The notes under the pieces: generated by a model | Told to the model about the DNA's origin: nothing | What the model saw: the letters and a program-made list of their open reading frames with translations, nothing else | The model's database searches: none | Translations under genes and position numbers: made by a program | Assembly (NCBI RefSeq): GCF_026914285.1 | Contig: NZ_CP113864.1 | Coordinates: 657,501 to 721,500, forward strand | Length of the DNA stretch: 64,000 nucleotides | DNA from: Caldicellulosiruptor naganoensis | GTDB lineage: Bacteria > Bacillota > Thermoanaerobacteria > Caldicellulosiruptorales > Caldicellulosiruptoraceae | Reading direction: 5' to 3' | Shown: piece after piece, positions 41,276 through 49,444 of the stretch | Numbering within the stretch: the first letter of the stretch is position 1 | How the letters are laid out: every line of letters begins with the position of its first letter

Positions 41276-42358
41276 TTGAATAACAACATTTACATCATTT
41301 ACGGCAAGGATGCAAAGTCAATGACAAAAGAACTACTAAAATATGCCGATGTGAAAAAGTACATTCCTAAAAATGCTAAAATTGCAATAAAACCAAACTT
41401 GGTAGTTGCAAAGCCATATACTTCTGGTGCTACAACAAATCCACAGATAGTTGAAGGGATAATTGAATACTTAAAGGAAAATGGCTATGGCGATATTACG
41501 ATTTTAGAAGGTGCATGGCTTGGGGCATCTACAAAGAGGGCATTTGAAGTGTGTGGATATACTGAGATTTCAAAAAAATACAATGTTAAGCTAATAGATA
41601 CAAAAGATGATAAAGCCAGAAAAGTAAATGTGGATGGGTATGAGCTATGTATTTGCGAAAGTGTATTTGAATATGACTACTTAATAAATGTTCCTCTTTT
41701 AAAAGGTCATTGCCAGACAAAGCTTACATGTGCCCTTAAAAACTTAAAAGGATTAATCCCTGATAGTGAAAAGAGAAGATTTCACACTCTTGGGCTTCAC
41801 AAACCAATTGCCTATTTGAACAAAGCAATACAAACTCATCTTATAGTGGTGGATAGCCTCATGCCAGACCCTGACTTTGAAGAGGGTGGGAATCCTGTTG
41901 AAAAGGATTTTATTGCACTTGGTTTTGACCCAGTTTTGATTGATGCCTTTGCTGCAGAAAATTTGGGATATAGTCCTTATGATATAGAATACATAAGGCT
42001 TGCTGAAAAATTAGGGATTGGGAAGGCAACAGGTTATAATCTTGTAGAAATAAATCCTGAAAAAAAGCCGGGCTTGGCTACAAAAAAATCATCTATTGTC
42101 AGCAAGTATGCAAAGTATATCGAAGATATGGATGCATGTTCTGTTTGCTATGCAAACTTGATAAGTGCTCTTATGAGATTAGATGAAGAAGGGTATCTGA
42201 GAAAGATTGACAAAAAACTTTGCATAGGTCAAGGTTTTAAGGGGAAAAAGGCTGATGGAATTGGAATAGGAAGCTGCACTAAAAATTTTGATATTTCAAT
42301 CTATGGCTGTCCACCAAAGTCAAATGAGATTGTTCAGTTTATAAAAAGCAAGGTTTAG
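41276..42358 (+). CDS. DUF362 protein (without ferredoxin motifs)
   Basis: The 360-aa protein is a DUF362 member (PKNAKIAIKPNLVVAKPYTSGATTNPQIV, then LINVPLLKGHCQTKLTCALKNLKGL). It lacks the two 4Fe-4S motifs seen in the DUF362 protein at 18090, though a few cysteines remain in the C-terminal half (DACSVCYANL). The TTG start has GAGGGAGAG upstream. A strong terminator follows. The function is unknown. Confidence 0.85.
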   Translation: MNNNIYIIYGKDAKSMTKELLKYADVKKYIPKNAKIAIKPNLVVAKPYTSGATTNPQIVEGIIEYLKENGYGDITILEGAWLGASTKRAFEVCGYTEISKKYNVKLIDTKDDKARKVNVDGYELCICESVFEYDYLINVPLLKGHCQTKLTCALKNLKGLIPDSEKRRFHTLGLHKPIAYLNKAIQTHLIVVDSLMPDPDFEEGGNPVEKDFIALGFDPVLIDAFAAENLGYSPYDIEYIRLAEKLGIGKATGYNLVEINPEKKPGLATKKSSIVSKYAKYIEDMDACSVCYANLISALMRLDEEGYLRKIDKKLCIGQGFKGKKADGIGIGSCTKNFDISIYGCPPKSNEIVQFIKSKV

Positions 42359-42371
42359 TGAAATAAAGAGG

Positions 42372-42405
42372 AAGCGCATGCCAAAGACAGCGGCATGCGC
42401 TTTTG
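42372..42405 (+). terminator. Intrinsic terminator after the DUF362 gene
   Basis: AAGCGCATGCC (42372-42382) pairs with GGCATGCGCTT (42392-42402) around a 9-base loop, and a short T run follows. Confidence 0.88.
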
Positions 42406-42452
42406 TGTTCTTAAAATACTTTTTCAACAGCCTGCGTTCTTTGAAAAATGAG

Positions 42453-42543
42453 CTATCCACAGAGTTATTGACATTATCCACAGTAATAAATTTTAACAGA
42501 AAGGATATGTTCTATTGTGGATTGTGTATATTTTTGTGGATAA
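42453..42543 (+). promoter_or_regulatory. Cluster of DnaA-box-like 9-mers
   Basis: Two exact TTATCCACA boxes occur: forward at 42474-42482 and reverse at 42535-42543. Near matches are CTATCCACA (42453-42461), TGTGGATTG (42516-42524) and TGTGTATAT (42523-42531). All five lie within about 90 bases of AT-rich DNA upstream of hpf, where no gene is encoded. Confidence 0.6.
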
Positions 42544-42623
42544 AATTTTTGTGTAAAAAGTTCTGATTAGGTGGTATATATATAATATCAAACAAAACCT
42601 TCTACATAGAAAGGATGATGAGT

Positions 42624-43172
42624 ATGATGAACTTTATAATCAGTGGCAAAAATATAGAGGTAACGGATGCACTAAAAGAGAGGATTGAAAAGAAACTTTC
42701 AAAACTTGAAAGGTATGTTAAAATGAACTGTGATGTATATGTGACATTAAGCGCTGAGAAGATTAGACGCATTGTTGAAGTAACAATACCATTTTACGGG
42801 ATGATTTTAAGAGCTGAAGAAGAGAGCAATGACATGTACAGTGCAATAGATTTGGTTGTTGACACTTTGGAAAGGCAGATAAGAAAGTTCAAGACAAAGA
42901 TTGCAAAAAGGGCAAAGGATGCAGAGTCTTTAAGATATATGACATTTGAAGAAGAAGCTCAGCAAGAGACAAATCAAGAGGAAAATGGTGAGTTTAAGAT
43001 TGCAAAGACAAAGAGGTTTCCAATAAAACCTATGAGCGTTGATGAGGCAATTCTGCAGATGAACCTTTTGGGACACAGCTTTTTTGTCTTCCTAAATCAG
43101 GACACTGATAAAGTCAATGTGGTATACAAGCGAAATGACGGCGCATATGGTCTGATTGAACCAGAATATTAA
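42624..43172 (+). CDS. hpf: Ribosome hibernation promoting factor, long form
   Basis: The 182-aa protein starting MMNFIISGKNIEVTDALKERIEKKL has the HPF N-terminal domain and a C-terminal dimerisation domain (KRFPIKPMSVDEAILQMNLLGHSFFVFLNQDTDKVNVVYKR). The long form makes 100S ribosome dimers in resting cells. ATGs at 42615, 42618, 42624 and 42627 are possible. GAAAGG fits 42624 best. The DnaA-box cluster lies upstream. Confidence 0.94.
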   Translation: MMNFIISGKNIEVTDALKERIEKKLSKLERYVKMNCDVYVTLSAEKIRRIVEVTIPFYGMILRAEEESNDMYSAIDLVVDTLERQIRKFKTKIAKRAKDAESLRYMTFEEEAQQETNQEENGEFKIAKTKRFPIKPMSVDEAILQMNLLGHSFFVFLNQDTDKVNVVYKRNDGAYGLIEPEY

Positions 43173-43216
43173 AAATTGAGTGACAAAAGAAAAAATTCTA
43201 TGAGACATCACTGCCC

Positions 43217-43257
43217 CCGCTCAAGACAAGTCGCGATTTGTCTTGAGCGGATTTTTG
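43217..43257 (+). terminator. Intrinsic terminator after hpf
   Basis: A 13-bp perfect stem (43217-43229 with 43238-43250) around an 8-base loop is followed by ATTTTTGTTT. Confidence 0.93.
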
Positions 43258-43333
43258 TTTGAAGATTAGTTCAATTAGTGATAAAATTATAACTTGAACA
43301 TCTAAAAATTCAAAAAATCGAGGGAGAAAAAGG

Positions 43334-45880
43334 ATGTTAAAAATTATCGAAAAACTAATTGGCAGCTACAGCGAAAGAGAGATAAAAAAGATCCTTCCGA
43401 TTGTTGACAAAATTGAGTCGCTCGCACCAGAGTATGAAAGATTAACAGATGCAGAGCTGAGGCAAAAAACAGATATATTCAAACAAAGACTAAAAAATGG
43501 CGAAACCTTAGATGATATATTACCAGAGGCTTTTGCAGCTGTAAGAGAAGCAGCATGGCGAACCTTGAAGATGCGACATTTCAGGGTCCAGCTTATTGGC
43601 GGCATAGTTCTGCATCAGGGAAGAATTGCCGAGATGAAGACAGGTGAAGGAAAGACTTTGGTTGCAACCCTTCCAGCATACCTCAATGCTTTGGAGGGGA
43701 AGGGTGTTCATATAGTAACTGTTAATGACTACTTGGCAAAAAGAGACGCAGAATGGATGGGGCCTGTTTACAGGTTCCTTGGCCTTTCTGTTGGTGTGAT
43801 AGTGCATGGCTTGACAAGCGAAGAGAGAAGAAAGGCTTATAACTGTGATGTTACCTATGGTACAAACAATGAGTTTGGTTTTGATTATCTGCGAGACAAC
43901 ATGGCCATTTACAAAGAAGAACTTGTTCAAAGAGAGCTCAACTATGCAATCATAGATGAAGTTGACTCAATCTTGATAGACGAAGCAAGGACGCCTCTTA
44001 TCATATCAGGGCCAGCTGAAAAGTCAACAGACCTTTACAAAAGGGCAGATAATTTTGTAAGAAAGCTAAAACCTCTTTATTACAACAGTGACGATGACAA
44101 ACAGATGCCAGACACAACTGGCTATGACTATATAGTAAATGAAAAAAGACACACAGTTGCTCTGACAGAAGAGGGAATTAGAAAGGCAGAAAAGTATTTT
44201 GGTGTTACAAATCTTGCCGACCCGGAAAATGCTACTTTGCACCATCATATAATCCAGGCACTAAAAGCTCATGCACTCATGAAACGTGACAGAGACTATG
44301 TTGTGAAAGACGGCCAGGTTATAATTGTAGACGAGTTCACAGGAAGGCTTATGTACGGTCGAAGATTTTCTGATGGGTTGCATCAGGCAATTGAGGCAAA
44401 AGAAGGTGTGAGGATAGAAAGAGAGAGCAAGACCCTGGCAACCATTACATTCCAGAATTATTTTAGACTATACAAAAAACTTGCTGGCATGACTGGTACT
44501 GCAAAGACGGAAGAGCAAGAGTTTAGAGAAATCTATAAACTTGATGTAATTGAGATACCAACTCACAAGCCAATGATAAGAATTGACCATCCGGACAAGG
44601 TTTACAAGACAGAAAAGGCAAAGTTCGAGGCAATTGTTGAGGAGATTGTTGAGACTCACAAGAAAGGTCAACCTGTTTTAGTAGGTACAGTGTCAATAGA
44701 AAAATCTGAGATGTTAAGCGAAATGCTAAAAAAGCGTGGAATTAAGCATGAGGTGTTAAATGCAAAGCACCATGAAAAAGAGGCGATGATAATTGCCAAA
44801 GCTGGTCAAAAGGGTGCTGTGACAATTGCAACAAACATGGCTGGGCGTGGTACTGACATTGTTTTGGGCGAAGGTGTTGCTGAGCTTGGTGGCTTAAAAG
44901 TGATTGGTACAGAGCGGCACGAAAGTAGGCGAATAGACAATCAGCTGCGCGGAAGAGCCGGCCGTCAGGGTGACCCTGGCGAATCACGGTTTTACGTCTC
45001 ATTAGAAGATGACTTGATGAGACTTTTTGGTTCTGAGAGAATCAAGAGACTTGTTGAATCATTAGGACTTCCTGACGATCAACCAATTGAACACAAGCTA
45101 TTATCAGATGCAATTGAAAAGGCACAAAAGAGAGTAGAGGCCCGAAACTTTGAGATAAGAAAGCATCTTTTGCAATTTGACGATGTTTTGAACAAGCAAA
45201 GGGAAATAATATATTCACAAAGAAGAAAAGTCTTAGAGGGTGAGAACTTAAGAGATTCTATCTTGAATATGATAGATGAACTTGTTGACTACAAGATAAA
45301 GGTCTACACAGGCGAAAGTCCACATCCTGATGATTGGGACATAAAAGGGCTTTTGCAGGACCTAAAATTTATATTCTTAGATGGTGAGCTTTCTGAACAA
45401 GATGCAAGGAATATGACAAAAGATGAGCTAAGAGAAAAGCTGATTTCCACTGCAAAAGAGAAATATTTGAAAAAAGAGCAAGAAGTTGGCGAACTTATGC
45501 GCGAGCTTGAAAGAGTTGTACTTTTGAAAGTTGTTGATATGCATTGGATGGATCACATTGACGCAGTCGACCAGTTAAGAGAAGGTATATCGCTTCGCGC
45601 AATTGGTCAAAAGGACCCAATAGTTGAGTTCAGATTTGAGGCTTTTGAGATGTTTGACCAGATGATAAAGAGAATCCAAGAGGATACCATAAAAATTATT
45701 CTCCATGCGAATGTTGAAAATATGCCACAAAGAGAAAGAGTTGTAAAGGAGATGTATGAAAACTCTCCATCAGATGCACCTGTGAGAAAACCTGTTGTCA
45801 AAACTCAAAAAGTTGGTAGAAACGATCCATGCCCTTGTGGCAGTGGCAAAAAGTACAAAAAGTGTTGCGGGGCTGTGTGA
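43334..45880 (+). CDS. secA: Preprotein translocase ATPase SecA
   Basis: The 848-aa SecA has the Walker A region [21 protein letters not shown], the helicase-like [19 protein letters not shown] motif, [10 protein letters not shown] in NBD2, and the C-terminal zinc-binding tail [13 protein letters not shown] that binds SecB or ribosomes. An GAGGGAGAAAAAGG site precedes the ATG. It drives Sec export of unfolded proteins. prfB follows after 46 bases. Confidence 0.98.
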
Positions 45881-47573: not shown

Positions 47574-48906
47574 ATGAGAATATTGATTGTTGATGATTCT
47601 CCCCTCATTTACAAACAGATCAACGATATTATAAAATCAATGGAAATGAACTGGGAAATTTAGACAGTTGATACTTGAGAAAAAGCAATTGAGCTAATTG
47701 GTAAAGATGATATTGACATAGTATTTTTGGACATAGTTCTACCAGGTGTAAGTGGATTTGATGTTTTGAAATTTATAAGAAGAACTAAAGAATATGGTGA
47801 TATTTATGTCATTGTTATGACATCGCTTGACGACGATGAAGTTATAAAAGAAAGCTTTAGCCTGGGTGCAAATGATTTTATAAGAAAGCCAATAAATCAA
47901 ATTGAACTAACTTCTCGACTGAGAGCTGCTGTAAGGTTGAGAAACTACCAATATCTCTACAAATCAGCTTTAAACGATTTACAAGAGAAAAATAAGGAAT
48001 TGATAGAACTGACGAAGAAGTTAAAAGAAACTCAAGATGTTTTAATCCAAAACGAAAAGATGTCTGCAATTGGTCAATTAGCAGCAGGTATTGCACATGA
48101 AATTAATAATCCTTTAGGATTCGTAATAACTAATATGGGAACATTAGGAAAATACATTGAAAAATTTAAAAAGTTAATAGAGGAGTACGATAAGGTTTAG
48201 TAAAAATATCTGTAAAAATATCTGTAATGGTAATCAAATAGATATGGAAGGTGTTATTGAAAATTGCAGGAGAATCAGTGAATTTAAAAAGCAATTTAAA
48301 TTTGATTTTATTATAGAAGATGTAGACCAGCTTTTGAGTGAGACAATGGATGGACTGAGGAGAGTTGCACATATTGTTCAGACATTAAAGAAATTTGTAC
48401 GAAGTGGGTTGGATGGTCAAGCAAGCTATGAAGACTTAAATGATATTATAGAGGAAACTCTATTGATTGCAAGAAACGAACTAAAATATGATATTGAAGT
48501 TATAAAAGAATATGGAGAAATAAGGCAAATTTATTGTAATCGTGGTGAAATAGGTCAAGTCATACTGAACATTTTAATCAATGCTGCTCAAGCAATAAAG
48601 TCACAGCCAAATAGGACACAAAAGGGTCATATTTGGATAAAAACATGGGAGGATTCTGATTTTGTATATTGTTCTATAAAAGACGATGGTCCTGGCATAA
48701 AAAAGATATACTTGAAAAAGATTTTCGAACCTTTCTTTACCACAAAGGATGTTGGGAAAGGAACGGGGCTTGGGCTAAGCATTTCATATGACATTATTGT
48801 TAACAAACATGGTGGGGATATTTGGGCTGAAAGTGAAGAAGGACATGGTGCTACTTTTGTATTTGAACTTCCTATAAAGTCGAAATTATTGGAAAATCAA
48901 ATTTGA
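47574..48906 (+). pseudogene. Response regulator-histidine kinase hybrid, disrupted
   Basis: Read through, it encodes a receiver domain (MRILIVDDSPLI, FLDIVLPG, RKP), a linker coiled coil and a histidine kinase (H-box GIAHEINNPLGF, N-box LNILINAAQAI, G-boxes DDGPGI and GTGLGLSIS). Frame 1 has in-frame TAG (47661-47663) and TGA (47676-47678) in the receiver, and stops at 48198-48200. Kinase coding continues one frame later from about 48196, which fits a single inserted G. A 12-bp tandem duplication (48201-48224) follows. It is a decayed gene. Confidence 0.85.
48201..48224 (+). repeat. 12-bp tandem duplication in the broken kinase gene
   Basis: TAAAAATATCTG occurs twice in tandem at 48201-48212 and 48213-48224. 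In the downstream coding frame it repeats KNIC. Confidence 0.9.
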
Positions 48907-48924
48907 AAAGTAGTGGGATAGACG

Positions 48925-49305
48925 ATGTCGAAATCAATCCTATTTGTTGATGATTAAATAAATATATTAAAGGCTCTTAATAGAGCGTTTTTGGATGAGG
49001 ACTATGAAGTATTTTTTGCCCAGAATGCTGAAGAAGCATTAAAAATTATGGAAGAAAGCCATATTGATTTAATAATAAGCGATATGAGAATGCCGAATAT
49101 TTCTGGGTTTGAATTGCTAAAAATTATTAAACAAAGATATCCTAGTACTATTCGTGTAATCTTGAGTGGATATGCTGACGAAAATCTTGTTTTCAGAGCT
49201 CTCCAAACAAATATTGCAAAGCTTTGCATTCTAAAACCATGGGATAATGAAAGACTTAAACAAATAATTAGAAATATATTCGAGTTGGAAGATTTGATGA
49301 AAGCC
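48925..49305 (+). pseudogene. RR-HDOD gene, 5' part with in-frame TAA, before the IS
   Basis: The receiver starts MSKSILFVDD and then has TAA at 48955-48957, where the parent most likely had an E codon. The frame continues with INILKALNRAFLDEDYEV, FISDMRMP-type acceptor region (LIISDMRMPNISG) and KPWDNERLKQII. It reaches LMKA at 49305, where IS sequence begins and adds about nine foreign codons (to 49335). The remaining part lies beyond the IS. Confidence 0.85.
49042..49305 (+). repeat. Left copy of 264-bp target duplication
   Basis: This segment of the receiver gene is repeated without any difference at 51287-51550. It ends with GATGAAAGCC directly before the left inverted end of the IS. 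Such long duplications are a known trait of IS1634/IS1549-type elements. Confidence 0.95.
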
Positions 49306-49444
49306 TTGACTTTGTCAGTTAAGAGGTGTTTTTGAGCTAACAAAAAATAACAAAGTCTTAATTTATGCGGGTTTCAAGAAGAGAAAAATAAAAAATTTTA
49401 AAAAATGTAGGGACAAATTTTAGCTTAATATATACTGAATTTGC

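What the first reader, a model, noticed from the sequence alone, without database searches (positions are those of the whole stretch)
42453..42543. DnaA-box cluster upstream of hpf, with no dnaA nearby
Two perfect TTATCCACA boxes in opposite orientation and three near matches fall within 91 bases in an AT-rich intergenic stretch. In many bacteria such clusters outside oriC titrate or reactivate DnaA, or regulate genes. Here the downstream gene is the ribosome-dimerising hpf, so a link of DnaA status to ribosome hibernation is possible. It could also be part of an origin if dnaA lies elsewhere.
Basis: partly seen in the sequence, partly recalled or inferred. Interest (0 to 1): 0.55.

Follow-up and report, generated by a model that had tools for sequence, protein, structure and literature searches.

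The report
Conserved DnaA-box array beside hpf
A short stretch of DNA far from the chromosome's replication origin carries an ordered row of docking sites for DnaA, the protein that starts DNA replication; related bacteria keep the same row near the same genes or at a second place, which suggests a built-in brake or sensor for replication rather than a switch for the neighbouring ribosome-hibernation gene.

Summary
The cluster is real, not chance, and larger than reported. In the 2.49-Mb genome it is the only place outside oriC with two perfect TTATCCACA boxes within 200 bp; 12 of 12 genus genomes have it at hpf. In other families the same head-to-tail array (weak box, 31/32 bp, weak box, 12 bp, TTATCCACA, 9 bp, TTATCCACA) lies upstream of hpf, often with a cold-shock or ABC-transporter gene in between, or just past tsaD (25 of 41 phylum places). 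[quoted passage not shown] The window's copy has lost one box that relatives keep. I read it as a DnaA-box cluster (DBC) that binds DnaA cooperatively and restrains or times initiation. hpf regulation is possible but less likely: the gene next to the array varies, and some relatives have the tsaD copy instead. It is not an origin: dnaA lies 700 kb away and GC skew keeps its sign. Binding and function are untested.

The parts
42421..42429 (+). Outer weak DnaA-like box TTTTCAACA (7 of 9), first member of the forward array
   Evidence: Invariant in 12 of 12 genus genomes. It is 32 bp before the next box, the spacing at which 22 of 32 hpf-linked and 12 of 27 tsaD-linked sites have a box of 7/9 or better (other offsets: mean 0.48, max 7, and mean 0.26, max 2)
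42453..42461 (+). DnaA box CTATCCACA (1 mismatch), second member of the array
   Evidence: 8 of 9 columns invariant in the genus
42465..42473 (+). Decayed box TTATTGACA; TTATCCACA in the 11 other genus genomes
42474..42482 (+). Perfect DnaA box, last member of the 32-12-9 array
42516..42531 (-). Two overlapping weak reverse boxes (CAATCCACA, ATATACACA; two mismatches each); some relatives carry TTATCCACA or CTATCCACA at the second
   Evidence: Read; relatives
42535..42543 (-). Perfect DnaA box of the reverse arm (TTTTCCACA in several relatives)
42544..42558 (.). Conserved AAATTTTTGTGTAAA, holding a weak reverse box (TTTTACACA, two mismatches)
   Evidence: 13 of 15 columns invariant in the genus; box read
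42570..42589 (+). Conserved GGTGGTATATATATAATATC, probable hpf promoter -10 region, outside the boxes; a similar element stands before hpf in G012 without boxes
   Evidence: 20 of 22 columns 42571-42592 invariant; G012 sequence. The promoter role is inferred; the consensus scan did not list it and found promoters about as often as in shuffles (3 against 1.6)
42372..42402 (-). Hairpin between the DUF362 gene and the array, the left boundary
   Evidence: scored as a terminator on the - strand
42615..43172 (+). hpf, long-form hibernation promoting factor (probable true start 42624 or 42627, after AAAGGATG)
   Evidence: Pfam PF02482 and PF16321; start choice inferred
41276..42358 (+). Upstream DUF362 gene, transcribed toward the array

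Best explanation
This is a DnaA-box cluster (DBC): a non-coding array on which DnaA, probably the ATP form, assembles cooperatively. It is a copy of an array that many members of this phylum keep at one or both of two places, upstream of the hpf-secA region and just past the 3' end of tsaD. Most likely mechanism: head-to-tail boxes with fixed spacing (about 32, 12 and 9 bp) seed a short DnaA oligomer, and in this genus a reverse arm of boxes 49-61 bp away may hold a second, facing one. That complex withdraws DnaA from oriC and, being duplicated when the fork passes about half-way along the replichore, damps early or repeated initiation. Shown: the boxes, their order and spacing, conservation, the two recurrent positions and the absence of a fixed neighbouring gene. 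Inferred: DnaA binding at this site, ATP preference, oligomer formation and the effect on initiation.
For: Only non-oriC place with two perfect boxes within 200 bp in 4 of 4 genus genomes whose exact boxes were fully listed. Present at hpf in 12 of 12 genus genomes. Sampled phylum: 33 of 120 genomes have a cluster within 4.5 kb upstream of hpf; 300 permuted words average 0.07 and none reaches 33. The one word with 11 is TATCCACAT, a shifted copy of the motif; the other 299 give at most 1. Exact triple module: 41 places in 34 of 129 genomes, backwards control 0. Of these 41: 9 on the hpf contig upstream of hpf on its strand; 1 in front of an ABC binding-protein-like gene at a contig end; 25 lie 9-162 bp past tsaD and all 25 face it; 1 about 2 kb past what looks like the end of tsaD; 1 elsewhere; 4 not fetched (same genera as fetched ones). 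None is near dnaA: other contig or at least 0.5 Mb away (compare). In B. [quoted passage not shown] Removing six clusters outside oriC there causes early initiation, partly relieved by one cluster put back at various places (PMC5295017, passage; PMC13220808, passage). Complementary retention: g6 lacks the hpf array but has tsaD boxes; the window's genus lacks tsaD boxes (0 of 12) but has the hpf array.
Against: No binding or phenotype data for this organism. Titration itself is debated: about 10-fold overproduction of DnaA gave no over-initiation in wild-type B. subtilis (PMC13220808, passage), and one review says clusters with significant roles have not been identified there (PMC5295017, passage). 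The top-20 B. subtilis DnaA regions as far as shown do not name hpf/yvyD, and the word is absent from the paper's main text. The window's own copy has lost one of the two adjacent strong boxes. 87 of 120 sampled phylum genomes show no cluster upstream of hpf by this criterion (14 of the 120 regions are cut short by contig ends). Sister-genus genome G012 has neither the hpf nor the tsaD array, though it has three triples elsewhere. All 33 hpf-linked clusters begin with a box on hpf's strand, which would also fit regulation of the downstream unit.
Confidence: 0.55

Rival explanations
1. DnaA-controlled promoter: DnaA bound to the array activates or represses hpf (or the ABC/csp/hpf unit), tying ribosome hibernation to replication status, as DnaA controls sda in B. 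subtilis.
For: The array is directly upstream of hpf in the whole genus, in G015 and G021, and in 12 of 33 sampled phylum genomes no ABC or csp gene was detected in between. All 33 clusters begin with a box on hpf's strand. In this genus the array is with hpf although the upstream gene is different (DUF362 instead of comF-like or zinc-ribbon genes). DnaA does regulate genes beside some of its B. subtilis clusters (PMC4447404, passage).
Against: The next gene varies: hpf, csp or an ABC operon. Many relatives have a separate sigma-H-like site just before hpf (read; consensus recalled). G012 keeps the TATA element without boxes. The same module lies just past tsaD, and the corresponding B. subtilis region is between two 3' ends.
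Confidence: 0.27
2. DnaA-reactivating (DARS-like) or DnaA-ATP-hydrolysing (datA-like) site, changing the nucleotide state of DnaA rather than only binding it.
For: Clustered boxes in fixed arrangement about half-way along the replichore; the facing arms of this genus could be a paired assembly platform.
Against: E. coli datA needs IHF (PMC5295017, passage); B. subtilis DnaA appears to be regulated largely through cooperative binding (PMC4447404, passage). No IHF or Fis search was made here. The reverse arm is not part of the wider conserved module.
Confidence: 0.1
3. Secondary or relic replication origin.
For: AT-rich DNA with several boxes.
Against: dnaA and six perfect boxes at the ends of C1; GC skew positive over all 64 kb; none of the 41 module places is near dnaA.
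Confidence: 0.02
4. Binding array of a protein other than DnaA that shares the word TTATCCACA.
For: Binding was not shown here; I saw no 32-12-9 array in this genome's oriC sequence (read).
Against: Exact DnaA consensus at two of the four positions in relatives and near-consensus at the others; DnaA is the protein shown to bind at the corresponding tsaD/gcp position in B. subtilis.
Confidence: 0.06

Closest known systems
[quoted passage not shown]
   Same: Clustered boxes outside oriC, intergenic; the sister copy of this array sits at the same place, just past tsaD; cooperative DnaA binding is expected
   Different: The B. subtilis top sites seen do not include hpf; binding not tested here; the B. 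subtilis sequence was not compared
E. coli datA
   Same: Non-oriC box cluster that restrains initiation
   Different: IHF-dependent, about 1 kb; no sequence or neighbourhood relation tested
E. coli DARS1/DARS2
   Same: Non-oriC clusters at conserved relative distance from oriC (PMC5010248, start of abstract in listing)
   Different: They reactivate DnaA-ADP; nothing here points to it
B. subtilis sda promoter (DnaA-activated)
   Same: Several DnaA boxes in front of a gene
   Different: The gene behind this array is not constant
DnaA-oligomerising region of Thermotoga maritima oriC
   Same: Boxes on which ATP-DnaA forms head-to-tail oligomers, also across inverted boxes (PMC10316083, passages)
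   Different: That is an origin with an unwinding element; this is not

Membership tests
DnaA-box cluster outside oriC (DBC) | Several DnaA boxes close together, away from dnaA/oriC | tested here: met
DnaA-box cluster outside oriC (DBC) | Clustering beyond chance and kept by selection | tested here: met
   12 of 12 in the genus; 33 of 120 in the phylum sample against a control mean of 0.07
DnaA-box cluster outside oriC (DBC) | Bound by DnaA | not testable with these tools
   Only indirect: tsaD-3' counterpart bound in B. subtilis (PMC4447404, passages)
DnaA-box cluster outside oriC (DBC) | Loss alters timing of initiation | not testable with these tools
   Reported for a set of six in B. subtilis (passages in PMC5295017 and PMC13220808; original paper PMC3245932 not held)
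B. subtilis gcp/ydiF cluster family | Sits just past the 3' end of tsaD/gcp | tested here: not met
   The window copy is at hpf and the genus has no cluster at tsaD (0 of 12); the shared array does occur there in other genera
Replication origin (oriC) | dnaA/dnaN neighbourhood and GC-skew reversal | tested here: not met
datA | IHF-dependent DnaA-ATP hydrolysis | not tested
   No IHF search or biochemistry
DARS | Stimulates ADP release from DnaA | not testable with these tools
   Needs biochemistry
DnaA-regulated promoter of hpf | Array constantly attached to hpf's own promoter | tested here: not met
   True inside the genus, not across the class or phylum

The most novel reading that the evidence does not exclude
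A portable replication-control element with fixed geometry (box-32-box-12-box-9-box) has been kept across this phylum at two interchangeable places, upstream of the hpf-secA region and past tsaD, with lineages retaining either or both; it acts as an ATP-DnaA-sensing counter of replicated chromosome arms rather than as a gene switch.
Probability: 0.4. Interest if true: 0.75.

Novelty: new member of a known kind. Interest (0 to 1): 0.6.

Why it matters
Non-oriC DnaA clusters are described for a few model species. A shared array with fixed spacing at two conserved places, one matching a DnaA-bound B. subtilis site, would make initiator titration in Gram-positive bacteria testable by comparative genetics: which lineages keep which copy, and whether copies substitute for each other. 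It also warns against reading the hpf neighbour as the target.

Tried and rejected
Origin hypothesis: rejected by dnaA position and GC skew. Plasmid origin: no match of 42359-42700 in the plasmid collection. Known RNA element: no Rfam hit at gathering score in 41900-43400. Window-wide box count as evidence: rejected, it equals chance. Promoter consensus scan: uninformative. Genome-contig scan with hpf: 4 loci of 46-54% identity, not used further. First alignment mixed strands because loci of minus-strand hits are not turned, and for that reason shows no boxes for five genomes; redone. In one search the offsets of L055 and L059 are wrong because those loci are cut by contig ends; I used the coordinates instead.

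Tandem-box matches inside coding genes (in a gene whose protein begins MEIRGHHFLC or similar, and in a gene beginning MCGIAGW, asparagine-synthase-like by recall) in class genomes were set aside as coding. The triples of G012 (one on C2, two on C13), the module of G090 (L132) and the g6 site before a 740-aa gene (L114) are neither at hpf nor next to tsaD and remain unexplained.

Dropped or limited: of 125 phylum genomes with hpf, 120 regions were fetched (G000, G026, G034, G036 belong to the class set; G154 left out, third of its genus); 14 of the 120 have less than 4.5 kb upstream. The sample includes several genera more than once, so counts are not independent. Control words closer than three mismatches to the box or its complement were left out. 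One search uses 32 hpf sites (24 phylum, 4 genus, 4 class; the last two groups picked by hand) and 27 tsaD sites (one locus twice, and L151 although tsaD is 2 kb away), all chosen by a core pattern; its offset statistics concern only positions outside the core. For the 24 phylum sites alone the outer box is found in 16; the next-best unrelated offset has 7 of 32. Of 37 class genomes, 30 tsaD loci were examined; five g6 and two f2 were not. At tsaD, 8 of the 10 g5 genomes fall below the cluster criterion, although the one printed (G016) has two adjacent boxes.

Full report
OBSERVATION. The number of near-boxes in the window is what shuffles give (20 against 21.6), so density over the window is no argument. 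The genome-wide picture is. The window is G000:C1:657501-721500 of a single 2,494,610-base contig. It holds 29 perfect boxes, fewer than the reversed control word (43): six at the ends of the contig around dnaA, two here, 21 single. Uniform placement of the 23 non-oriC boxes gives a pair within 61 bp in 1.2% of trials. In each of the four genus genomes whose perfect boxes were fully listed (G000-G003), the hpf site is the only non-oriC place with two boxes within 200 bp.

CONSERVATION IN THE GENUS. hpf was found in 12 of 12 genomes. All 12 carry the array in the same place. The other 11 have two adjacent boxes, TTATCCACATTATCCACA (the second is TTATTCACA in G006), where the window has TTATTGACA followed by TTATCCACA: the window's copy is the decayed one. 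Mean column identity is 96-99% in the four boxes tested, 79-80% in the sequence left of the array and in the spacer after the outer box, 84% in the central spacer, and 98-99% in the TATA element and leader before hpf.

ARCHITECTURE. Aligning sites of the class and phylum on the adjacent pair shows a weak box 12 bp before it and, often, another 31 or 32 bp before that: 22 of 32 hpf-linked and 12 of 27 tsaD-linked sites have a box of at least 7/9 there, against means of 0.48 (max 7) and 0.26 (max 2) for other offsets. In the window these are 42421 (TTTTCAACA, invariant in the genus), 42453, 42465 (decayed) and 42474. The genus adds a reverse arm (42516-42558) that is not part of the wider module.

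TWO CONSERVED PLACES, CLASS. In 37 genomes of 4 families the tandem box with at most one mismatch is present in 36; the exception is the window's own genome. It lies about 120-150 bp before hpf in G001-G011, G015 and G021, 324 bp before it in G022, and 2.4-2.8 kb before it on the same strand in G013, G014, G016-G019, G023-G025, G035 and G036. In the five of these regions that I annotated (G013, G014, G016, G035, G036) three genes of an ABC transporter lie in between; Pfam was run on the G016 binding protein and ATPase only. The tandem is not near hpf in the nine g6 genomes or in G012; G020 could not be placed because its contigs are short. Some genomes have further tandem matches, most of those annotated lying inside coding genes.

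TWO CONSERVED PLACES, PHYLUM. In 129 genomes drawn evenly the exact triple module has 41 places in 34 genomes, backwards control none. Nine are on the hpf contig upstream of hpf on its strand (compare), and a tenth (G113) lies in front of an ABC binding-protein-like gene at a contig end. Twenty-five lie 9-162 bp past the stop of tsaD, all 25 facing it. One is about 2 kb past what looks like the end of tsaD (G042), one elsewhere (G090); four were not fetched. None is near dnaA. With a looser criterion, 33 of 120 hpf upstream regions have a cluster, 24 of them within 1 kb; 300 permuted words average 0.07, and the only one above 1 is TATCCACAT, the motif shifted by one base, with 11. tsaD was recognised by sequence motif, with one Pfam check (PF00814).

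WHAT IT MEANS. The downstream gene is not constant: a crude motif scan finds a cold-shock gene and/or an ABC ATPase between cluster and hpf in 21 of 33 phylum genomes, neither in 12. G012 keeps hpf's TATA element without boxes. Lineages appear to keep one place, the other, or both: the window's genus has no cluster at tsaD (0 of 12), whereas g6 has no tandem near hpf but has clustered boxes at tsaD (4 of 4 fetched); G015, G021 and G023 have both; f4 has none at tsaD (0 of 2). G012 has neither, but three triples elsewhere. This pattern fits a function that tolerates different places better than control of one gene.

LINK TO KNOWN BIOLOGY. In B. [quoted passage not shown] Deleting six clusters outside oriC gives early initiation, partly relieved by one cluster returned at various places (PMC5295017 passage; PMC13220808 passage; the original, PMC3245932, is not held). 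Against a simple titration model, about 10-fold DnaA overproduction did not cause over-initiation in wild-type B. subtilis, and one review passage says clusters with significant roles in initiation control have not been identified there. Head-to-tail DnaA oligomers, even across inverted boxes, are documented for T. maritima oriC (PMC10316083, passages). Text searches for DnaA boxes with hibernation promoting factor (0 papers), with tsaD, with hpf/secA/titration (10 papers, 8 listed, none on this by title), with gcp and Firmicutes (10 listed) and for Caldicellulosiruptor with DnaA (9 listed) showed no earlier report of this site in titles or abstract starts. This covers only the open-licence library, and B. 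subtilis papers use the name gcp.

VERDICT. A real, conserved DnaA-box cluster. Member of a known kind by anatomy; the hpf position and the shared 32-12-9 array at two places are, as far as these searches go, new. Binding and function are inferred.

Noticed in passing
L107 (2774-2834), L108 (2118-2147 and 4397-4426): Sister-genus genome G012 has three copies of the triple-box module away from hpf and tsaD, two of them 2.3 kb apart around a 668-aa gene.
   Followed up: partly
L132:1501-1530: Triple module of G090 lies beside a response-regulator-like gene, the only fetched phylum place that is neither at hpf nor near tsaD.
   Followed up: no
G000 genome-wide: TTATCCACA is rarer than its reversed control word (29 against 43; with one mismatch 851 against 1036), hinting at avoidance of stray DnaA boxes; in the other genus genomes the exact-word difference is not consistent.
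   Followed up: no
window:42570-42589: GGTGGTATATATATAATATC before hpf is almost invariant in the genus and similar in G012, while other families have a sigma-H-like site before hpf (consensus recalled).
   Followed up: partly
window:49464-51206: 580-aa ORF that looks like an insertion-sequence transposase (recalled resemblance), in a lower-GC stretch beside response-regulator/histidine-kinase-like ORFs that appear split (47727-49335).
   Followed up: no
G000:C1:551532, 1363695, 758834, 1870079: Two pairs of ORFs matching the DnaA family weakly, with identical scores within each pair, probably duplicated transposon helper genes.
   Followed up: no
L109-L113, L116-L120: Tandem DnaA boxes inside two kinds of coding gene recur across class genomes; taken as coding coincidence but not tested.
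   Followed up: no
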